A stretch of DNA of 64,000 nt. Origin: Gemmatimonadota bacterium (GTDB taxonomy: Bacteria > Gemmatimonadota > Gemmatimonadetes > Longimicrobiales > Gaopeijiaceae). Shown piece after piece: positions 5,981-15,723 of the stretch. Position 1 is the stretch's first letter; each line of letters opens with the position of its first letter. The stretch lies in contig JACQVF010000023.1 in NCBI GenBank assembly GCA_016209885.1, forward strand, positions 62,001 to 126,000, in the 5' to 3' direction. A program made the translations under genes and the position numbers. Under the pieces are notes generated by a model. It was given only the letters and a program-made list of their open reading frames with translations. It ran no database searches and was not told the DNA's origin.

Positions 5981-6107
5981 GTCGTGCAACCCTAGGTCCT
6001 CTCGCGACCTCTGCGGCAGCGTCTGTCGCGTTTGAGTTCGGGCTGACCCCCGGCGCCCGCGGCGCCGACGCCTCATCGTGGGGGCGTCACCGATTGCCCG
6101 ACCGGCG

Positions 6108-7371
6108 ATGCCTCAACGTTACTCCGAAACCGACACCCGCCAGCAACTCATCGACCGACGCCTCCGCCTCGCCGGTTGGGACGTCGATGATCCGTCACAG
6201 ATTATCCAGGAGCTCGACATCCACATCGCGGCCGCCAGTCCAAGGAGCACCTCCCGGCGGTGCCCCGCTGGCCGGACCCGGGTGAAACCGCCTTTGACCG
6301 GAACCGGCGCGTTTGCGTGACGACCTATCCGACGATGCTGAACCTCATCCAGGCCGGCACCACGCCGGCCACCTGGATCTCGCCGTTCTTCTTCGATCTC
6401 ATCGTGGCGGACGAGAGCCACCGCAGCATCTACAACACCTACCAGGCGAGGCCGCTTACTGGGCCCGCCTCGGCCGCGACCAGCGCGCCTTCCTTCGGCA
6501 GACCATAGCGCCGATCATGCGCGCCAGGTCCGACGCGGACTTCAAAGCCTTGCGGTTCGAGACCGATGTCGTCGAGCTGGGCACCGCCCTCCTGGCCGAC
6601 AACCGCGAGGCCGCCACTGCGCTGCGGGAGGCGATCATCCAGCAGGTGTCGGAGCTACCGCTGGGCGTCAACCTCGTGGCGCGGGAGCGGGACGTGATCG
6701 AGGCCGTCCTCGGGGCTGCATGGTGGGATGCGGCCGATGACGCCAAACTGCGCGACCTCGTGGCGCGGCTCGCACCGCTGATGCGGTTCCGGCAGCAGCG
6801 GAGAGACGCAATGCTCTCCCTCAACCTCGCCGACCTCACTGCTGTTGACGAGCGCGTGCATGTGGGCCCGGAGGGACGCGACATGCCGATCACGGCCTAC
6901 CGCCAGCGGGTCGAGGAGGCCGTGCGCGCGCTACTGGCCGAGAACCCGGTGCTCCAGCGGCTCCAGGCCGGCGGAGAAGTTTCCGATGACGACCTGCGCG
7001 AGCTGGCCGACATCCTGCGGCGTCAGGATCCGGCAATCGACGAGGAGCGGCTCCGGAAGGTCTATGACGTGCGCACCGCGAGCTTCGTGCAGCTCATCAA
7101 GCACGTGCTTGGCGTCGAGCCCCTCGAGCGCTGGTCCACGCTCGTGACGCGCGAGTTTGAACGCTTCATCGCCGACCACACCACTTACACAGCCCTCCAG
7201 ATCCGCTTCCTCCAGACGCTCCGCACCTTCATCCTCCAGCGCGGCCACATCGAGCGGCGGGATCTCATCGACTTGCCGTTTACCCAGTTGCATCCGGACG
7301 GCGTACGCGGCGTGTTTCCGTCCCACGAGATCGAGGAGATCCTGCGGTTCGCGGGTGGGCTGGTGGCGTAA
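6108..7371 (+). pseudogene. hsdR: Remnant of a type I restriction endonuclease R subunit
   Basis: Three pieces in three frames match parts of HsdR. An N-terminal piece from the ATG at 6108 has TRQQLIDRRLRLAGWDV. A helicase piece at about 6260-6450 has RVCVTTYPTMLNLI and the DEAD-like motif VADESHRS. A C-terminal piece from about 6446 to the stop at 7371 starts AAYWARLGRDQRAFLRQ and ends in an EcoEI-R C-terminal-like domain. The nuclease domain, Walker A and most of the helicase are absent, with junctions near 6235 and 6450. No active restriction subunit can be made. The C-terminal frame is still open for about 300 codons, so the decay is probably fairly recent. Confidence 0.85.
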
Positions 7372-8185: not shown

Positions 8186-8710
8186 ATGCTAAGTCCGGCC
8201 GTCCGTTCGAAGGTGGACAGCCTGTGGGACAGGTTCTGGTCCGGCGGGATCGCCAACCCGCTCACCGCCATCGAGCAGATCAGCTACCTGCTCTTCATGC
8301 GGCGGCTCGACGCGCTGGACGAGAAGAAGCGCGGAGACGCCGAGTTCCTGCGGCAGCAGTTCCATTCGTTATTCGACGGGACGTACACCACGCGGGCTGG
8401 CGCCGAGCGCCCGGCTGAGGAGCTCCGCTGGAGCAAGTTCCGCCATCTGCCGCCCGAGGAGATGCTCGAGCACGTGCGCGACCACGTCTTCCCGTTCATC
8501 AAAACGCTCCAGGACGGCGGCCAGGTCTTCACGCGCTACATGCAGGACGCCGTGTTCATCATCCCCAAGGCGTCGCTCCTGGTCGAGGCGGTCGGGATCA
8601 TCGACGACATCTACCCCGAGCAGCCGCCTCAGAAGATCCTCGCATCTCTACGCGCCGCCGAGCGGAAAATTCTCGAGGATCTAGACCATCTCGAGCAGTT
8701 ACTTCGGTAG
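8186..8710 (+). pseudogene. hsdM: Truncated type I methyltransferase M subunit
   Basis: A 174-residue open frame starting MLSPAVRSKVDSLWDRFW that matches the helical HsdM N-terminal domain up to about residue 145 (YMQDAVFIIPKASLLVEAV). It then jumps to a short C-terminal coiled segment (KILASLRAAERKILEDL). The whole SAM-binding methylase domain, with its NPPF motif, is gone, although the frame is kept. A full HsdM is about 480-520 residues. It cannot methylate DNA, so hsdS next to it has no working partner in this window. An RBS-like GAGGAGG at 8172-8178 precedes the ATG. Confidence 0.8.
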
Positions 8711-8742: not shown

Positions 8743-9888
8743 GTGGGCGAGCCGAGTACCTGGAATCCGCGTCAGTCTCCTTCCACGGATCCGTTTCGGT
8801 ACATCGACATCTCAAGCATCGATCCGGCAGAAAAGCGCATAGGCCACGTCGGCACTGTCGCTCCCCGTGACGCGCCCAGGCAACTTGTGCCCAGTGGTGA
8901 CGTGCTCGTCTCCACCGTCCGGCCTAACTTGAACGCCGTGGCAATCGTGCCGGACTACTTGGACGGGGCAACAGCGTCCACTGGTTTCGCCGTGCTACGA
9001 CCAGACCCGGCCAAGGTTGATCCTCGATACCTCTACCACTGGGTCAGAAGTCCCGAGTTTGTTGGCCAGATGACGCGTCGGGCGACTGGCGCGAGTTATC
9101 CGGCTGTCACGGATCGCGTGGTGCGCGAGTCGAAGCTCCCCGTTCCTCCCCTCCCCGAGCAGCGGCGGATCGCGGCGGTGCTGGACAAGGCAGACGCGAT
9201 TCGGCGGAAGCGGCGGGAGAGCATCCGGCTGCTGGACGAGCTCTTGCGCTCGGCGTTCTTGGAGATGTTCGGCGACCCTGTGACGAATGAGAAAGGGCGG
9301 GGAGTGGTGAGCCTGGCGGAGCTGCTTACTGAGCCACTTCGTAACGGGCTTTCTCCAGCAAAGGGGGGTGCCGTCGTTGCCCAGGTCTTGACCCTGACCG
9401 CGATTACTGGCGCCCACTTCGAGTCCACAGCTGTGAAGACTGCATCCTTCTCGCATGCGGCGCGCAGGGACCAGTTTGTAGGGCCTGACGACTTCCTGAT
9501 CTGTCGTGGGAACGGGAATCTGAAGCTCATCGGCCGCGCCAAGTTCCCCCACGGACTCGCGGCACCGACGGTATTTCCGGACACGATGATCGCCGCGCGC
9601 ATCGATCGGTCCCGCGTCGAGCAGACGTACCTCGAGACGGCCTGGGGAATGCCGGGCCTGCGGCGCGCACTGGAGCGTGGCGCGCGAACGACTAGCGGTA
9701 TTCACAAGATCAACCAGAAGGTTCTCGCGTCGTTGTGCTTTCCGCTTCCGCCGATCGAACAGCAGAAGCGCTACACGTTGATCGCGGCTCGGGCGACAGA
9801 TTTGAGGGAAAAGTTCTTCAGCGACGGGACCGACCACCTATACGACTCTCTGGTGCAGCGGACATTTGGCGGGGAGGGGTTCGGCTGA
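8743..9888 (+). CDS. hsdS: Type I restriction-modification specificity subunit
   Basis: A 381-residue HsdS with two target-recognition domains, each followed by a conserved helical spacer. The first spacer has PPLPEQRRIAAVLDKADAIR near residue 140 and RKRRESIRLLDELLRSAF after it. The second ends with FPLPPIEQQK. It starts at a GTG at 8743; the N-terminal TWNP motif is very near this start, so a few residues may be lost. With hsdM and hsdR broken it is an orphan here and could act only with an M subunit from elsewhere. The first spacer region is duplicated at 14552-14656. Confidence 0.8.
   Translation: MGEPSTWNPRQSPSTDPFRYIDISSIDPAEKRIGHVGTVAPRDAPRQLVPSGDVLVSTVRPNLNAVAIVPDYLDGATASTGFAVLRPDPAKVDPRYLYHWVRSPEFVGQMTRRATGASYPAVTDRVVRESKLPVPPLPEQRRIAAVLDKADAIRRKRRESIRLLDELLRSAFLEMFGDPVTNEKGRGVVSLAELLTEPLRNGLSPAKGGAVVAQVLTLTAITGAHFESTAVKTASFSHAARRDQFVGPDDFLICRGNGNLKLIGRAKFPHGLAAPTVFPDTMIAARIDRSRVEQTYLETAWGMPGLRRALERGARTTSGIHKINQKVLASLCFPLPPIEQQKRYTLIAARATDLREKFFSDGTDHLYDSLVQRTFGGEGFG
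9166..9270 (+). repeat. 105-bp direct repeat, copy 1 (hsdS spacer)
   Basis: This segment of hsdS aligns without gaps to 14552-14656, with 95 of 105 bases identical. It encodes the conserved helical spacer of HsdS. The two copies are in the same orientation and enclose the DUF5131-TcmP-MBL-HigBA genes. Confidence 0.9.
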
Positions 9889-9915: not shown

Positions 9916-9944
9916 TTGACGAAGTCTCCTTGCTTCGGGATACT
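9916..9944 (+). promoter_or_regulatory. Predicted promoter of the DUF5131-tcmP pair
   Basis: TTGACG at 9916-9921 and GATACT at 9939-9944 are separated by 17 bp, with five and four of six consensus matches. It lies between the hsdS stop and the next start, so the pair would have its own transcript. Confidence 0.55.
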
Positions 9945-9987: not shown

Positions 9988-10746
9988 TTGGGCGATCGCT
10001 CCAGAATCGAGTGGACGCACGCCACCTGGAACCCGATGACCGGGTGCACCAAGATCTCCAGGGGATGCGACAACTGCTACGCGCTACTCCTGGCCCAGAC
10101 CAAGGTGCGGGCCTCGTATCTGCGTCGGTCCCCGGTCAAAGACACGGTCGCGAACCGGGAGGATCCGTTCGCGCCGAGGTTCTGGGATGAGCGCCTGGAG
10201 CAGCCGCTTCGCTGGCGCGAGCCGCGGCGCATCTTCGTAAACAGCATGTCCGACGTGTTCCACGCGCACTTCTCGTTGGAGATCATTCAGCGTGTGTTCG
10301 ATGTAATGAACCGCGCGAGCTGGCATCAGTTTCAGGTTCTGACCAAGCGACCCGAGCGGGCACTGCGGCTTTCAGAGCACCTCACGTGGACTGAGAACAT
10401 CTGGATGGGGACCTCCATCGAGGACATGGATGTCGCCTTTCGGGCGGACTACCTCAGGCAGATCCGGGCCGCCGTGCGGTTCATCAGCGCCGAGCCTCTT
10501 CTGGGGCCCCTGGAGGACCTCGACCTCACGGGGATCGACTGGGTGATCGGAGGAGGGGAAAGCGGCGCTGCCCATCGACCCTGCGATCCAAGCTGGGCCC
10601 GTGGACTGAGGGATCTCTGTGTTCGCCAGGGCGTCGCGTTCTTCTGGAAGCAGTGGGGAGGCAGAACCCACAGCGCGGGAGGCCGGCTGCTGGACGGTCG
10701 GGTGTGGAACGAGTACCCCGTGCCCCTGGTCGACGCTACCGTCTGA
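9988..10746 (+). CDS. DUF5131 (phage Gp37/Gp68-type) three-cysteine protein
   Basis: A 252-residue protein with the family N-terminus IEWTHATWNP and a cysteine motif C-x6-C-x2-C (C20, C27, C30, in CTKISRGCDNCYA). The rest is also typical: FVNSMSDVFH, LTKRPER, FISAEPLLGP, WVIGGGESG and FFWKQWGG. Family members occur in phages and accessory regions. The fold and cysteines suggest an iron-sulfur, possibly radical-SAM-like enzyme, but the spacing is not the classic C-x3-C-x2-C and no function is established to my knowledge. It starts at TTG 9988, the position matching the family N-terminus. The next gene encodes its usual partner TcmP, and a promoter precedes the pair. Confidence 0.85.
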   Translation: MGDRSRIEWTHATWNPMTGCTKISRGCDNCYALLLAQTKVRASYLRRSPVKDTVANREDPFAPRFWDERLEQPLRWREPRRIFVNSMSDVFHAHFSLEIIQRVFDVMNRASWHQFQVLTKRPERALRLSEHLTWTENIWMGTSIEDMDVAFRADYLRQIRAAVRFISAEPLLGPLEDLDLTGIDWVIGGGESGAAHRPCDPSWARGLRDLCVRQGVAFFWKQWGGRTHSAGGRLLDGRVWNEYPVPLVDATV

Positions 10747-10847
10747 GCCGGAACCGAAGCGCGACGACCAGCAAGACCGCGAGCCGGAGATGGCGGCGAG
10801 ACTGATCCGTGGTCAGGCCGTCTTCGAGGCGGTGCTGGAGATCAGTG

Positions 10848-11939
10848 ATGCCGACGCCGAAAGAGACGTTGTGGGAGATGGACCCCCACACCAAAGCAAA
10901 GCACGAGATCCTGCGGCGCTATCTCAAGGCGTGGTTCCCGATCCTGAATAAGTACAACCAGCGGATCGTCTACATCGACGGGTTCTCCGGCCCTGGGCGC
11001 TACAAGGGAGGTGGACCAGGCTCGCCGATGATCGCGCTCGATGTCGCCATCAATCATCGCAGGGAGATGGCAGGCGAGGTCGTGTTCTGGTTCATCGACG
11101 AGCGTCGGGACCGCGTCGCGCATCTTAAGCAGGAGCTGCGTGGCCTGAAGATTCCCGGCCACTTCAGGGTCACGGCTGACTGCGGGCGGTTCGACCGCAA
11201 ACTCCGGGAACTCTTGGATTCTCTTGACGCCGAGGGCAGCCGCCTGGCACCGACGTTCGCCTTCATCGACCCTTTCGGTTTCTCGGGCATCCCCTTCACG
11301 CTCATCGAGCGGCTCCTGAAGCATCGGAAGTGCGAGGCCTTTATCACGTTCATGGTCGATGCGATCAACCGGTTCCTCGAGCACCCGAAGGAAAAGGTCG
11401 TCGGCCATATCGTGGGCGCATTCGGTACCGAGGACGCCGTCCAGATCGCACAAGCGGGCGGCGACAGGGTCGCCAATCTGAGAGCGCTCTACCAGTCGCA
11501 GCTTCAGCGGGTTGCAAAGTTCGTCCGCTACTTCGAGATGCGCGACTGGCAGGACCGGACCCAGTACCATCTGTTCTTCGCCACGAACAGCGACCTCGAG
11601 CACCTTAAGATGAAGGAGGCGATGTGGCGGGTAGACCCCGAGGGAGCGTTTCGATTCTCGGATGCGACGAATCCGGACCAGCTCGTCTTGTTCGAGCAAG
11701 ACACCACGCCGATGTTGGTTGCCGAGCTTCGCCGACACTTTCATGGGAAGGGCCAGGTAACCGGCCTGGAGGTTCGTAAGTATGTGGAGGATCAAACAGC
11801 TTACCTCAAGAAGCACATGACCGCAGCCCTTAGGGCGGAAGAAGCTGTCCGCAGGCTAAAGGTTGCGCCCACAAAGGCGGGCGGAGCGAAGCGGAAGAAG
11901 AACAGCTATCCCGACGACGCGGGGATCACCTTTCTGTGA
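10848..11939 (+). CDS. tcmP: Three-Cys-motif partner protein TcmP
   Basis: A 363-residue protein matching the TcmP family, named because it is encoded beside the three-cysteine (DUF5131) protein, as here. Near the N-terminus it has KAKHEILRRYL, then YIDGFSGPGRYKGG, and at about residue 139 FIDPFGFSG. These look like methyltransferase motif I and a DPF(G) variant of the catalytic (D/N)PP(Y/F) motif. An SAM-dependent modification role is plausible but unproven. The ATG at 10848 has GGAG seven bases upstream. The C-terminal 90 residues are Lys-rich. It is 101 bases downstream of the DUF5131 gene on the same strand. Confidence 0.83.
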   Translation: MPTPKETLWEMDPHTKAKHEILRRYLKAWFPILNKYNQRIVYIDGFSGPGRYKGGGPGSPMIALDVAINHRREMAGEVVFWFIDERRDRVAHLKQELRGLKIPGHFRVTADCGRFDRKLRELLDSLDAEGSRLAPTFAFIDPFGFSGIPFTLIERLLKHRKCEAFITFMVDAINRFLEHPKEKVVGHIVGAFGTEDAVQIAQAGGDRVANLRALYQSQLQRVAKFVRYFEMRDWQDRTQYHLFFATNSDLEHLKMKEAMWRVDPEGAFRFSDATNPDQLVLFEQDTTPMLVAELRRHFHGKGQVTGLEVRKYVEDQTAYLKKHMTAALRAEEAVRRLKVAPTKAGGAKRKKNSYPDDAGITFL

Positions 11940-12130
11940 GGCTGACTGACGGTCGAGACCAGGAGGCCACGGGCTAGAAGAGGCGCGAGGTACGACGTTG
12001 CGGGAACGTTTCAAGCGTGAGAGCTTGGGCGTGGGAGCTCGTGGGGTTGGAGAGGCCGATTTGGGCTGCCACAGCCGCGCCCCGCGAGCACTGAGAGATG
12101 CGTGCCGCCGGCCCGGCAAGAGGAGGCATT

Positions 12131-13594
12131 ATGACGCACCGACCCTGGATTGCGCTCGCGGCGATCGGCCTGCTGAGCGCATGCGCGCGGGCAACTCCCG
12201 AACAGCGGATCATCAACGACGCCGCAGCCGCCCTGGGCGGGCGCGACCGGATCCTCGCCGTGCAGACGCTGGTGATCGAGGGCGAGGGTACCAACGGCAA
12301 TCTCGGCCAGGATATGACGCCCGAGGCCACCGGTCAGACGTTCACGGTCAGCGGCTACAGACGCGCAATCGACGTCGCCGGCCGGCGCGTGCGCATCGAG
12401 CAGACGCGCACCCCGAACTTCCCGTACTTCCAAGGTCAGCAGCCGCAGACGCAGGTCTTGGGCCTCGACGGCGACGTGGCCTACAACGTCGCGGCGAACG
12501 GAAATGCGACGCGCGCGGCCAACGCGGTGGCTGAAGCCCGACGCGTGGAGCTGTACCATCATCCGATTACCATCGTACGCGCCGCGCTCGACCCGGCCGC
12601 CATGCTCACCAATGCGCGCATGCTCGACAGCGAGGCCAGCGTCGACGTGATGACCGCCGACGGTGTCACGCTCACGCTCGCGATCGACGGCACGACGGCC
12701 CTGCCGGCGCGCGTGACCTCGATGACGGATAACGCGAACCTCGGTGACCTAGCGATCGAGACGAGCTTCGGAGGATACCAGGACGTCGGCGGGCTGCAGC
12801 TCCCCACGACGCTCACGACCAAGACCGACCAATACCAGACGGCCGAGCTGCGCGTGACGAACCAGACCGTGGATGCCGACGTCCGCGCTCTCGCGGCGCC
12901 ACCAGCCGCGGCATCGGCGGCGCCCATCACGGGACCCCCGCCCGCCAACGTCTCGGTCGAAGAGGTGGCGAGGGGCGTGTGGTTCCTCGCCGGTCAGTCG
13001 CATCACAGCGTGCTCGTGGAGTTCGCCGATCACTTGACGCTCATCGAGGCGCCACAAAACGACACCCGGACCCTGGCGGTGATCGCCAAGGCGCGCGAGC
13101 TGCGGCCCGACAAGCCGCTGACCCAGGTGGTCAACACGCACCATCATTTCGATCACTCGGGCGGCATTCGGGCCGCCGTGTCGGAGGGGTTGACCGTCAT
13201 CACGCACAGTGCGAACGCCGCGTTCTACCAGAAGGCGGTGGGCCGCCCGCACACGATCGTGCCGGACGCCCTCGCAAAGAATCCCAAGCCTTTGACTACC
13301 GAAACGGTCAACGATGAGATGATTCTGAGCGATGGGACCATGACGGTCGCGCTGTACCCGATCACCGGCAACCCACACGCCTCCACGCTGCTGATGGCCT
13401 ACTTCCCACGCGAGCGCATCCTCGTCGAGGCGGATGTGTTCAACCCGGGCGGCGCCGTGGCGCCGTACGCGGCCAACCTGTTGGAGAACATCAGGAGGCG
13501 CAATCTGCGGATCGATCGCATCGTGCCGATTCACGGGGCGATCACGCCGTTTGGCGAGCTCGCGAGGACTGTCGCGGCGCTGGGGGCCAACTGA
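12131..13594 (+). CDS. Metallo-beta-lactamase-fold lipoprotein
   Basis: A 487-residue protein with a lipoprotein signal peptide (lipobox LSAC, cysteine at about residue 17). An N-terminal region of about 270 residues of unknown fold follows, with an alpha-helical start like INDAAAALGGRDRI. The C-terminal half is an MBL hydrolase domain carrying THHHFDHSGG at about residue 336, then a glycine-rich end. The metal-binding histidines and aspartate are intact. The ATG at 12131 follows an AGAGGAGG site. Its substrate is unknown and its place among defence genes may be accidental. It ends head-to-head with the HigBA pair, with a shared hairpin between them. Confidence 0.8.
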   Translation: MTHRPWIALAAIGLLSACARATPEQRIINDAAAALGGRDRILAVQTLVIEGEGTNGNLGQDMTPEATGQTFTVSGYRRAIDVAGRRVRIEQTRTPNFPYFQGQQPQTQVLGLDGDVAYNVAANGNATRAANAVAEARRVELYHHPITIVRAALDPAAMLTNARMLDSEASVDVMTADGVTLTLAIDGTTALPARVTSMTDNANLGDLAIETSFGGYQDVGGLQLPTTLTTKTDQYQTAELRVTNQTVDADVRALAAPPAAASAAPITGPPPANVSVEEVARGVWFLAGQSHHSVLVEFADHLTLIEAPQNDTRTLAVIAKARELRPDKPLTQVVNTHHHFDHSGGIRAAVSEGLTVITHSANAAFYQKAVGRPHTIVPDALAKNPKPLTTETVNDEMILSDGTMTVALYPITGNPHASTLLMAYFPRERILVEADVFNPGGAVAPYAANLLENIRRRNLRIDRIVPIHGAITPFGELARTVAALGAN

Positions 13595-13640: not shown

Positions 13641-14021
13641 CTACGACCCCGCAGGCTTGCGACGTCCGACCTTACCGTCGGGAAGCGCTCTCCTTTGGCT
13701 AGCCTGGCGCTTCCCCACGGAAACGAATCGAATCTCGACTCGCTTCTGGAGGGCGCCGGCAATACGCCTGAGCATCGAGAGCGAGTGACCCTCGTAGTCG
13801 GCGTCCTCCAGTCGGGAGATCACCGACGCCGTCGTGCCGATCAGGCGGGCCAGCTCCTGCTGCGTGAGGCCTGCCTCCTGACGAAGGTCATAGATCTTCC
13901 GTGCCACCTCGGCGTTGGCGCGTTCCTCTTCGAGCTCGGCCTGCCGTTCAGGCCTGCCTTCGAAGTAGCGCCGTTGCATGATCTCGACGGCATCGCTGGT
14001 GGTGTTTCGTTTCCGGGCCAT
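13641..14021 (-). CDS. higA: HigA/XRE-type antitoxin
   Basis: A 126-residue protein with a helix-turn-helix of the Cro/C1 type at about residues 45-100: KIYDLRQEAGLTQQELA, then GTTASVISRLED. It would neutralise the HigB-like toxin and repress the shared promoter. The toxin stop overlaps an ATG at 14027 as ATGA, but GAGGA abuts that codon. The ATG at 14021 has the same GAGGA at a six-base spacing, so I start there (MARKRN). The order is toxin first, then antitoxin, as in the HigBA type. The basic C-terminal tail of about 25 residues is variable. Confidence 0.83.
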   Translation of the reverse strand: MARKRNTTSDAVEIMQRRYFEGRPERQAELEEERANAEVARKIYDLRQEAGLTQQELARLIGTTASVISRLEDADYEGHSLSMLRRIAGALQKRVEIRFVSVGKRQASQRRALPDGKVGRRKPAGS

Positions 14022-14023
14022 CG

Positions 14024-14389
14024 TCATTCCTCGTGGGTGTGAGTCTTCGGGTCGGACTCGAACTTCCGCTTCCGTTCGATGGCCTTGTCGATTTCCTTGG
14101 GCGGGACCTGCCCCTCCTTGGTCAGGCCATGACTGAGCACCACGGCCACGTTCTCGTAGAAGAAGTAAAGTATCCGGTAGTTCACGCCATGAAGAGCTAC
14201 CCGAAGCTCGTAGATCCCATCCCGCAGGAAGTCGGCGTCTGGACGCCGGAGCTTGTAACCCAGCGCCCGGAGCCGCTCGATGCCGACCCGACATTTGGCC
14301 ACCGCCTTGGCCGGGAGCTGATCGAGCCACTCGAGCACGGGCACGCTTCCGTCCTCCTCGCGGTAGAAGACGACCCTCGTCTGTGGCAC
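14024..14389 (-). CDS. higB: HigB/RelE-type toxin
   Basis: A 121-residue protein of the phage-derived Gp49-like/HigB family (PF05973 type), related to RelE ribosome-dependent mRNA interferases. It has VLEWLDQLP near the N-terminus, GIYELRVALHGVNYRILYFF in the core, and the usual LSHGLTKEG before a Lys-rich end. The start is GTG at 14389. A promoter with an embedded palindrome lies immediately upstream, and higA overlaps the 3' end. Size and order are normal. Confidence 0.87.
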   Translation of the reverse strand: MPQTRVVFYREEDGSVPVLEWLDQLPAKAVAKCRVGIERLRALGYKLRRPDADFLRDGIYELRVALHGVNYRILYFFYENVAVVLSHGLTKEGQVPPKEIDKAIERKRKFESDPKTHTHEE

Positions 14390-14435: not shown

Positions 14436-14551
14436 GGCGACGCGTCCGAGGTGAAGCTGTGGGCCCGCGGGGAGCGGTACCATAGTCGGCCGGGACTTGT
14501 GGGAGGGTCGGCACCGGCTAATGGGGTAGGCTGATCGCCGTACGCCGCGGT

Positions 14552-14656
14552 CGGATCGCGGCGGTGCTGGCCAAGGCGGATGCGACTGGGCGGAAGCGGC
14601 GGGAGAGCATCCGGCTCCTGGACAAGTTCTTGCGTTCGGCGTTCCTGGAGATGTTC
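14552..14656 (+). repeat. 105-bp direct repeat, copy 2 (hsdS spacer)
   Basis: Matches 9166-9270 at 95 of 105 bases, same orientation, no gaps. It is the start of the recognisable part of the second hsdS remnant. Confidence 0.9.
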
Positions 14657-14964
14657 CGGGGATCCCGTTACGAAGGCGAAGGGCTGGCCAACGGCTCCGC
14701 TGGGCGAAGTGATCAAGGTGAAAGGCGGCGAGTTTCTGCCCGCCCGCGAGATGGACCGGGGGTGTCAGTATCCAGTGTATGGAGGCAATGGGCGGTGCGG
14801 GTTTTCACTCCTGCTACCTGCTCGAGCGTCCGCTAGTGGTTATTGGGCGTGTAGGCCTTTACTGCGGTGCGGTGCACCTGGCGGCGCCTAACAGCTGGAT
14901 CACGGACAATGCCCCATACGTCGCCGAGCACAGCGAAAGCCTTCAGCTCCCGTACTTGGAGTGA
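14552..14964 (+). pseudogene. hsdS: Second, broken hsdS copy
   Basis: Begins abruptly inside the HsdS central spacer (RKRRESIRLLDKFLRSAF) and continues through GDPVTKAKGWPTAPLGEVI and YPVYGGNG into the second recognition domain, which includes IGRVGLYCGAVHLAAPNSW. It then stops at 14964 before the C-terminal spacer. A one-base insertion near 14657 and another shift near 14800 move the frame twice, so no product longer than about 100 residues can be made. The recognition-domain sequence differs from that in the 8743 gene, so this is a different specificity allele, not a simple duplicate. Confidence 0.85.
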
Positions 14965-15022: not shown

Positions 15023-15439
15023 CTACTGCCCGATGACCCGGAGTCCACTCGCGCGGGCCGCCGTGCCGAGTGCCCGGTCATGGGTAGCCATGATCAGATC
15101 CTCCCCGCGCGCCTCGCGCCACATGAGCGCGGTGGCCAGGTGAACGGCGTCGACAGTGCCCAGCGGCGTGGGGAACGGCTGCGCCGCGCGCCGCAGCACC
15201 GCCATCCCCGGCTCCACGATCTCCATTTCCTCGGTCAGCCGATACACGGTTTCACGCCGTAACGCCAACTCCGAGTCCGGGAGGTCGGCGCGCAGTCGCA
15301 GGCGGTCCAGCGTGCGCAGGCACTCCACCTCGACCAGTGCGCTGGCGACACCGGTCTCGACCCTCTCCCATTCGGCCAACTTGCCCCGTTGGCCCAGCAC
15401 GACACGCAGCAGGACCGAGGAATCGAGGTAGGCGATCAC
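15023..15439 (-). CDS. vapC: VapC-type PIN-domain toxin
   Basis: A 138-residue PIN-domain ribonuclease. The acidic metal ligands are visible: AYLDSSVLLRV at the start (first Asp), ASALVEVECLR (Glu), TVDAVHLATAL (Asp) and ATHDRALGTAA (last Asp). VapC toxins cleave tRNA or rRNA when free of VapB. The start is GTG at 15439, overlapping the antitoxin stop by four bases (GTGA), so translation is coupled. Only 58 bases separate its stop from the broken hsdS on the other strand. Confidence 0.88.
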   Translation of the reverse strand: MIAYLDSSVLLRVVLGQRGKLAEWERVETGVASALVEVECLRTLDRLRLRADLPDSELALRRETVYRLTEEMEIVEPGMAVLRRAAQPFPTPLGTVDAVHLATALMWREARGEDLIMATHDRALGTAARASGLRVIGQ

Positions 15440-15702
15440 CGCTCGGACTGCCGCTCCTCCGCGAGCAGCTCGAGCACGTCCAGTTCGGTCGGGAGCGGGG
15501 GCGGGAGCCGCACCCCTCCCAGCTTGGCGTAGCGACGGGCCGGCCCCCTGACCGTGAGCGTCTCGGGCGCTTCGTAGGGGATCACACGCGCCACGGGGGT
15601 GTCACGGTCGAGGATCGTGAGGACATGACCGCGCCGAACGTACCGCAGATGCTCGCTCAGGTGAGCCTTGAGGTCCGCGATCTTCACGCTCTTCATGGTC
15701 AT
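15436..15702 (-). CDS. vapB: VapB/Phd-type antitoxin
   Basis: An 88-residue antitoxin with the Phd/YefM-like N-terminus KSVKIADLKAHLSEHLRYV, a short strand region VLTILDRDTPVARVIP, and an acidic C-terminal tail (LLAEERQSER) likely to wrap VapC. Possible starts are ATG at 15723, 15702 and 15696. I use 15702, which has GGTGA eight bases upstream. The family consensus begins at 15696, so the true start is uncertain by two codons. It is first in the vapBC pair. Confidence 0.8.
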   Translation of the reverse strand: MTMKSVKIADLKAHLSEHLRYVRRGHVLTILDRDTPVARVIPYEAPETLTVRGPARRYAKLGGVRLPPPLPTELDVLELLAEERQSER

Positions 15703-15723
15703 ATAGTAGTCACCAATGGTCAT
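15695..15723. promoter_or_regulatory. Paired ATGGTCAT direct repeats at the vapBC start
   Basis: ATGGTCAT occurs at 15695-15702 and again at 15716-15723. The copies start 21 bp apart, two turns of the helix, over the antitoxin start region. Such spacing is common for sites bound cooperatively on one DNA face. No strong promoter boxes could be assigned, so this is a candidate autoregulatory site only. Confidence 0.35.

What the first reader, a model, noticed from the sequence alone, without database searches (positions are those of the whole stretch)
9988..11939. DUF5131-TcmP pair with its own promoter inside a decayed restriction locus
The three-cysteine protein (C-x6-C-x2-C) and its methyltransferase-like partner TcmP are complete and preceded by a promoter, while hsdR, fic and hsdM around them are broken. 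Retention of the pair amid decay suggests it is selected for. The families are known to co-occur, but I know of no established biochemical or anti-phage function. This is the best candidate here for an undescribed system, perhaps a nucleic-acid or protein modification cassette.
Basis: partly seen in the sequence, partly recalled or inferred. Interest (0 to 1): 0.65.

Follow-up and report, generated by a model that had tools for sequence, protein, structure and literature searches.

The report
Mobile radical-SAM and methyltransferase gene pair
Two neighbouring genes encode a probable radical-SAM enzyme and a probable base-methylating enzyme that travel together on phages, plasmids and genomic islands as an untested candidate phage-defence unit; the pair is already catalogued, but what the proteins are, and that they swap partners, has now been worked out.

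Summary
Window 9988-10746 (DUF5131) and 10848-11939 (TcmP) are intact beside broken hsdR, fic and hsdM. It is not an undescribed system: NCBIfam names TcmP for this partnership and PADLOC lists the pair as untested defence candidates PDC-M30/PDC-M41.

What I add by computation: (1) DUF5131 is a radical-SAM-type protein with a stretched cluster motif (C-x6-C-x2-C). Its best fold matches are spore photoproduct lyase; where DUF5131 is absent (one same-phylum locus, two haloarchaeal plasmids), TcmP is flanked by canonical C-x3-C-x2-C radical-SAM genes, one of them a sequence bridge to DUF5131. (2) TcmP is a Rossmann methyltransferase; its only invariant residues across 39 divergent members are K18, G48, G50, L93 and D141, i.e. 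the SAM site and a Lys-Asp dyad like that of m6A methyltransferase RlmJ. (3) Pairing is near-obligate for TcmP (46 of 51), but partners are exchanged: DUF5131s 93% identical can sit beside TcmPs that hardly align, and the window's own pair is chimeric. (4) DUF5131 also occurs alone, often in phages.

Best reading: a mobile two-enzyme nucleic-acid modification cassette in phage/host conflict, with constant radical-SAM chemistry and a swappable, target-selecting methyltransferase. Substrate and anti-phage activity are untested.

The parts
9988..10746 (+). DUF5131 protein (252 aa): radical-SAM-type enzyme with C-x6-C-x2-C motif (Cys20, Cys27, Cys30)
   Evidence: PF07505 E=2.7e-90; TIGR04471 radical SAM mobile pair protein A matches this and all 34 aligned relatives; PADLOC PDC-M41B/M30B; AlphaFold model pLDDT 92; best PDB matches spore photoproduct lyase
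10848..11939 (+). TcmP (363 aa, ATG start): class I SAM methyltransferase with C-terminal winged-helix-like tail; catalytic-type Lys18 and Asp141, SAM-site Gly48/Gly50
   Evidence: TIGR04474 E=3.5e-63; PADLOC PDC-M30A; AlphaFold model pLDDT 93; PDB matches Trm1 and RlmJ; invariant residues
10045..10077 (+). three-cysteine motif CTKISRGCDNC, predicted [4Fe-4S] cluster ligands
   Evidence: direct reading; motif present in 56 of 57 relatives, the exception lacks its N-terminus
9916..9944 (+). possible sigma-70-like promoter (TTGACG-17-GATACT)
   Evidence: 9 of 12 matches; 1 found against 0.2 expected in shuffles; weak
8743..9888 (+). hsdS, type I specificity subunit, nearly whole; flank of the pair
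   Evidence: PF01420 E=8.9e-12; many PADLOC Specificity_I models
8186..8710 (+). hsdM remnant (N-terminal domain only)
   Evidence: PF12161 E=1.8e-17, 174 aa
7627..8172 (+). fic remnant
   Evidence: PF02661 profile positions 68-93 only
6078..7371 (+). hsdR remnant in several frames (N-terminal piece and C-terminal EcoEI_R_C; helicase core missing)
   Evidence: PF04313 weak, PF08463 E=1.4e-24

Best explanation
The two genes form a self-contained mobile cassette of two SAM-using enzymes. DUF5131 is a radical-SAM enzyme: three cysteines in a stretched C-x6-C-x2-C loop hold a [4Fe-4S] cluster that splits SAM to a radical, on a partial (beta/alpha) barrel most like spore photoproduct lyase. TcmP is a class I methyltransferase with the Lys-Asp dyad of N6-adenine-type enzymes and a winged-helix-like tail. 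Together they most likely make a modification on nucleic acid, with TcmP choosing the target and methylating it and DUF5131 doing the same radical chemistry in every version. The cassette serves phage-host or element-element conflict, most likely as a prophage-, plasmid- or island-borne anti-phage system. Shown by computation: protein families, pairing, partner exchange, kept active sites, mobile context. Inferred: nucleic-acid substrate, order of steps, defence outcome.
For: Radical SAM: TIGR04471 matches 35 of 35; spore photoproduct lyase takes PDB ranks 1-6, with NifB, SuiB, LIAS and DesII below. Natural replacements: in L117 the only interior over-cut-off TcmP without DUF5131 in the phylum sample has an adjacent same-strand C-x3-C-x2-C gene that matches Radical_SAM (8.5e-10) and DUF5131 (1.6e-4); in two haloarchaeal plasmids TcmP is flanked by two Radical_SAM genes. 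Methyltransferase: invariants K18, G48, G50, L93, D141; K18 and D141 in 42 of 42 of a closer set; K18 and D164 are essential in RlmJ (PMC3814359); best folds Trm1 and RlmJ. Pairing: 48 loci within about 360 bp in the phylum sample, 65 of 80 best loci across phyla. Exchange: DUF5131 93% identical with TcmP alignable over only 56 aa; distance correlation 0.12 over 96 pairs. Conflict context: integrase and repressor neighbours in Gordonia phages; an operon with the Wadjet-type domain families on a Rhodococcus plasmid, and restriction genes and toxin-antitoxin genes on other plasmids; PADLOC candidate status.
Against: No experiment. Foldseek TM-scores are modest (about 0.46, no E below 0.001 for DUF5131); profile comparison with four spore-photoproduct-lyase-like proteins gave nothing and a profile search of PDB sequences gave nothing. 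TcmP motif IV is D-P-F/Y-G, not D-P-P-Y, so the methylated atom is uncertain. Fold similarity to RNA methyltransferases does not show the substrate, which could be protein or small molecule. DUF5131 alone is common, so the two need not act on the same molecule. Enrichment of defence genes nearby was not quantified per gene.
Confidence: 0.55

Rival explanations
1. Writer toxin and eraser antitoxin: TcmP puts a harmful methyl mark on nucleic acid at targets set by each version, and DUF5131, a repair-type radical-SAM enzyme, removes it. Infection that disturbs DUF5131 would free TcmP (abortive infection); phages would carry DUF5131 alone as an antidote.
For: TcmP is almost never without a radical-SAM-type neighbour, while DUF5131 alone is frequent in phages (41 of 80 viral loci solo; at least 15 changes on supported branches). 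A constant eraser of one chemistry with changing writers explains partner exchange, free gene order and one DUF5131 beside two TcmP genes on a Rhodococcus plasmid. The nearest fold is a DNA-repair radical-SAM enzyme.
Against: No radical-SAM antitoxin is known to me; convergent gene order does not suit tight toxin control; nothing shows that TcmP is toxic.
Confidence: 0.2
2. Protective marking (anti-restriction): the pair modifies the DNA of the element that carries it so that host restriction enzymes fail; variable TcmP answers variable restriction specificity.
For: Carriage on temperate phages and plasmids; location beside restriction genes in the window and elsewhere.
Against: Also common in plain chromosomal islands; in Gordonia phages it sits by the repressor, where lysogeny-expressed defence genes lie, rather than with early lytic genes.
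Confidence: 0.15
3. DUF5131 is a maturase: it modifies the TcmP protein (or a small peptide), not nucleic acid, as radical-SAM enzymes do in peptide natural-product pathways.
For: TcmP depends on a radical-SAM-type neighbour; a radical-SAM peptide maturase (SuiB) appears among the fold matches.
Against: Partners that hardly align share one DUF5131 type, no common motif outside the active site is seen in TcmP, and DUF5131 is often solo.
Confidence: 0.06
4. Restriction-modification-like pair: TcmP marks self DNA, DUF5131 attacks unmarked DNA.
For: Methyltransferase with a partner gene, in restriction-rich islands.
Against: DUF5131 without TcmP is common, which would be self-destructive; DUF5131 shows no nuclease family match.
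Confidence: 0.04

Closest known systems
PADLOC phage-defence candidates PDC-M30 and PDC-M41
   Same: Both window proteins match their models (PDC-M30A for TcmP, PDC-M41B/M30B for DUF5131); same two-gene make-up
   Different: Nothing essential; DUF5131 scores slightly higher to M41B and TcmP to M30A, in line with mixed partners. These systems are predictions without a tested mechanism
NCBIfam TIGR04474 three-Cys-motif partner protein TcmP with DUF5131 (phage Gp37/Gp68 family)
   Same: TcmP is above the family cut-off and adjacent to a three-Cys-motif protein
   Different: As far as its name shows, the family definition says nothing of radical-SAM chemistry or a Lys-Asp dyad
Radical SAM mobile pair protein A (TIGR04471)
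   Same: All 35 aligned DUF5131 proteins match it
   Different: Score 66.8 bits against a cut-off of 355, so not members; cluster motif is C-x6-C-x2-C
Spore photoproduct lyase (radical-SAM DNA repair)
   Same: Top six PDB fold matches of the DUF5131 model
   Different: Profile-profile comparison with four SPL-like proteins failed; cluster motif differs; TM-score about 0.46
RlmJ, 23S rRNA m6A2030 methyltransferase
   Same: Fold match (E 8e-6, TM 0.42/0.53); motif-X Lys, motif-IV Asp and the glycine-rich SAM motif shared
   Different: TcmP has D-P-F/Y-G in motif IV and an extra C-terminal domain; the N-terminal Tyr4/His6 of RlmJ were not matched
DarT-DarG type writer/eraser toxin-antitoxin (from my own knowledge)
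   Same: Would share the logic of an enzyme that marks nucleic acid and one that removes the mark
   Different: Different enzymes altogether; only a rival reading here

Membership tests
DUF5131 (PF07505) | whole-length match above the curated cut-off | tested here: met
   302.6 bits against 28.9, profile 2-243 of 243
TcmP (TIGR04474) | match above the curated cut-off | tested here: met
   214 bits against 53, profile 1-262 of 263
TcmP (TIGR04474) | gene partnered with a three-Cys-motif protein | tested here: met
   101 bp downstream of DUF5131 in the window; 46 of 51 over-cut-off loci in the phylum paired, 4 of the other 5 at contig ends, the last beside a radical-SAM gene
Radical SAM superfamily | three Cys ligands of a [4Fe-4S] cluster, canonical C-x3-C-x2-C | tested here: inconclusive
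   Three Cys kept in 56 of 57 but spaced C-x6-C-x2-C; aligns with canonical motifs with a three-residue insertion
Radical SAM superfamily | partial (beta/alpha) barrel fold | tested here: met
   AlphaFold pLDDT 92; best PDB matches are radical-SAM enzymes, TM about 0.46
Radical SAM superfamily | Pfam Radical_SAM (PF04055) match | tested here: not met
   No match for the window protein; a bridging protein matches both families, so the claim is relation, not formal membership
Radical SAM superfamily | reductive cleavage of SAM | not testable with these tools
   needs biochemistry
Class I SAM methyltransferase, m6A type | glycine-rich SAM motif and motif-X Lys with motif-IV Asp | tested here: met
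   K18, G48, G50 and D141 invariant in 39 members
Class I SAM methyltransferase, m6A type | motif IV [DN]PP[YF] | tested here: not met
   D-P-F/Y-G in most; so N6-adenine specificity is not claimed as membership
PDC-M30/PDC-M41 candidate defence system | A and B genes adjacent | tested here: met
Anti-phage defence system | protection from phage | not testable with these tools
   only an observational link in P. aeruginosa: 32 strains with PDC-M30, 68.8% resistant (PMC10855318)

The most novel reading that the evidence does not exclude
TcmP is a sequence-selective nucleic-acid-marking toxin and DUF5131 is a radical-SAM demodifying enzyme that undoes the mark: a conflict system in which one universal radical eraser guards against many exchangeable writers, and phages carry the eraser alone as a counter-defence. 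It would be the first radical-SAM antitoxin or immunity enzyme of that kind known to me.
Probability: 0.2. Interest if true: 0.9.

Novelty: new member of a known kind. Interest (0 to 1): 0.5.

Why it matters
A widespread two-gene cassette, known only by placeholder names, gets a concrete chemistry to test: radical-SAM enzyme plus Lys-Asp methyltransferase. The combination of near-obligate pairing with free partner exchange, and of frequent solo DUF5131 in phages, makes clear predictions about which protein sets specificity and which is safe alone. If it is a defence system it would bring radical-SAM chemistry on nucleic acid into phage immunity; if it is protective marking it would be a new route of anti-restriction.

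Tried and rejected
A first search with a guessed Pfam number (PF18741) was an error and irrelevant. phmmer of both proteins and a DUF5131 profile against PDB sequences found nothing useful; the TcmP profile hit isocitrate dehydrogenase weakly through a glycine loop, taken as a chance match. Profile comparison of DUF5131 with four SPL-like proteins found nothing, so closeness to that family in particular rests on fold only. A third conserved gene was sought among 144 nearest neighbours: no Pfam family occurs more than three times, so the unit is two genes. PADLOC scans of near and far neighbours gave 285 against 44 matching models, but one gene can hit many models, so this is only suggestive of defence enrichment. 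Solo DUF5131 in viral contigs beside other DNA methyltransferases: about 5 of 140 neighbours, not clearly above background, so it neither supports nor excludes a second-step role. Literature search found no experimental paper on DUF5131 or TcmP in the open library.

Full report
What is there. The window lies in a metagenome-type assembly (G000, 115 contigs, 93.6% complete) whose relatives are Gemmatimonadota by the titles of matching records (inference). Between about 6.0 and 15.7 kb lies an island with lower GC over much of its length (0.60-0.65 in most 1-kb bins from 7 to 15 kb, against 0.67-0.72 outside). In order: hsdR remnant, fic remnant, hsdM remnant, a nearly whole hsdS, DUF5131, TcmP, a metallo-beta-lactamase-fold gene, a Gp49/HTH toxin-antitoxin-like pair, a 142-bp hsdS repeat and a Phd/PIN pair. 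DUF5131 is 9988-10746. TcmP runs from ATG 10848 to 11939; the nucleotide match to its nearest relative begins exactly at this ATG. Both reading frames are whole, and substitutions against relatives are mostly synonymous (dN/dS about 0.1-0.17).

It is a known but untested kind. TcmP is above the cut-off of NCBIfam TIGR04474, a family named for its three-Cys-motif partner, and both proteins match PADLOC's phage-defence candidates PDC-M30 and PDC-M41. In 2024 PDC-M30 was counted in 32 P. aeruginosa strains, 68.8% of them phage resistant (PMC10855318), which is an observation on strains and not a test of the system. The open library holds no paper on DUF5131 and only incidental mentions of TcmP.

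Pairing. In 298 genomes of the phylum, 48 TcmP loci lie within about 360 bp of DUF5131. Counting only loci over the family cut-off, 46 of 51 are paired; four of the remaining five stop at contig ends, and the fifth, L117, is discussed below. Among the 80 best DUF5131 loci from all phyla, 65 are paired, and 39 of 80 in viral contigs. Gene order is free: DUF5131 first, TcmP first, and convergent are all common, with 22 changes on a tree of 197 proteins. No third gene recurs among neighbours.

DUF5131 is a radical-SAM-type protein. The three cysteines are present in 56 of 57 homologues and are among 43 invariant columns. NCBIfam's 'radical SAM mobile pair protein A' matches all 35 aligned members, although far below its cut-off. 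The AlphaFold model (pLDDT 92) matches spore photoproduct lyase at PDB ranks 1-6 and other radical-SAM enzymes below, with modest TM-scores. The clearest evidence is natural replacement. In L117 the interior TcmP that lacks DUF5131 has a same-strand neighbour with the canonical C-x3-C-x2-C motif, which matches both Radical_SAM (8.5e-10) and the N-terminal part of DUF5131 (1.6e-4); profile alignment puts its motif against the DUF5131 motif with a three-residue insertion. On two haloarchaeal plasmids TcmP is flanked by two Radical_SAM genes that align along the DUF5131 profile, through LTKR and G-x-S-[VI]. Reductive SAM cleavage itself is not shown.

TcmP is a methyltransferase with its active site kept. 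The model (pLDDT 93) has a Rossmann methyltransferase core with best PDB matches Trm1 and RlmJ, plus a helical C-terminal tail; haloarchaeal members match a winged-helix family there. Across 39 members, of 14-43% identity to the window protein, only K18, G48, G50, L93 and D141 are invariant. In RlmJ, K18 and D164 are the catalytic pair, and K18A and D164A are dead (PMC3814359). Motif IV is D-P-F/Y-G, not D-P-P-Y, so I do not claim N6-adenine specificity as shown.

Partner exchange. Over 96 pairs the distance correlation between the partners is only 0.12, just above the largest of 500 permutations (0.109). In two mycobacterial loci (L139, L163) the DUF5131s are 93% identical, the DNA match runs about 95 bp upstream of the gene, and the TcmPs align over only 56 residues. 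Where TcmP has not been exchanged (L163, L189) it evolves at about the same pace as DUF5131, so exchange, more than fast change, makes TcmP diverse. The window's pair is itself chimeric: DUF5131 is nearest L077 (78%), TcmP nearest L128 (67%), whose own DUF5131 is only 55% identical. One Rhodococcus plasmid carries two TcmP genes beside one DUF5131. DUF5131 without TcmP is common, and at least 15 gains or losses of the partner are forced by supported branches.

Context of conflict. In Gordonia phages the pair sits between integrase and immunity repressor (Fairfaxidum) or near integrases, a RelBE pair and the repressor (Jablanski). In another Gordonia phage, CarolAnn, repressor-coexpressed genes give tested defence against other phages (PMC6426606); those genes are unrelated, so this is an argument from position. 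On plasmids the neighbours include DUF3375/DUF4194/ATP-binding genes (the Wadjet make-up, from my own knowledge), an Eco57I-type methylase with a GIY-YIG nuclease, and toxin-antitoxin pairs.

How it most likely works. TcmP selects and methylates a nucleic-acid target; DUF5131 performs one constant radical reaction on the same base or on the mark. The cassette gives its carrier an advantage against phages or rival elements. My estimates: radical-SAM relation 0.9; active methyltransferase 0.9; nucleic-acid substrate 0.75; role in phage/element conflict 0.7; joint writing as against erasing about 2 to 1. The main rival, writer and eraser, fits the asymmetry (TcmP hardly ever without a radical-SAM-type neighbour, DUF5131 often alone in phages) and should be tested first, because expressing TcmP alone decides it.

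Novelty. The window holds one more member of a catalogued candidate system. The assignment of DUF5131 to radical-SAM chemistry through bridging and replacing genes, the RlmJ-like dyad, and the partner exchange are what this work adds; I found none of these in the library at hand, which lacks most subscription papers.

Noticed in passing
window 13641-14389, - strand: Gp49-like (DUF891) toxin-type gene with an overlapping HTH gene, a HigBA-like toxin-antitoxin pair in the same island
   Followed up: partly
window 15023-15723, - strand: PIN-domain toxin with Phd/YefM-type antitoxin, VapBC-like pair at the far end of the island
   Followed up: partly
window 14544-14684: 142-bp stretch 86% identical to hsdS 9159-9298: a second, broken hsdS, sign of specificity-gene duplication or recombination
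   Followed up: partly
window 12098-13594: metallo-beta-lactamase-fold protein (PF00753) with a long N-terminal part, just downstream of TcmP on the same strand; function not examined
   Followed up: no
L280 3415-6817: Rhodococcus plasmid with two TcmP genes around one DUF5131, next to a zeta-toxin gene and a Wadjet-like operon
   Followed up: partly
L283 5329-9119 and L303 2315-6119: haloarchaeal plasmids: TcmP with two canonical radical-SAM genes in place of DUF5131
   Followed up: yes
L104 9434-10225 and L105 9369-10223: DUF5131 alone, just downstream of the same acyl-CoA-dehydrogenase-like gene in two genomes, hinting at a kept TcmP-independent role
   Followed up: no
order-level relatives (G180, G224, G243, G251, G273, G286): a distant TcmP-like family in frames of 430-675 aa without DUF5131 nearby; partner not identified
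   Followed up: no
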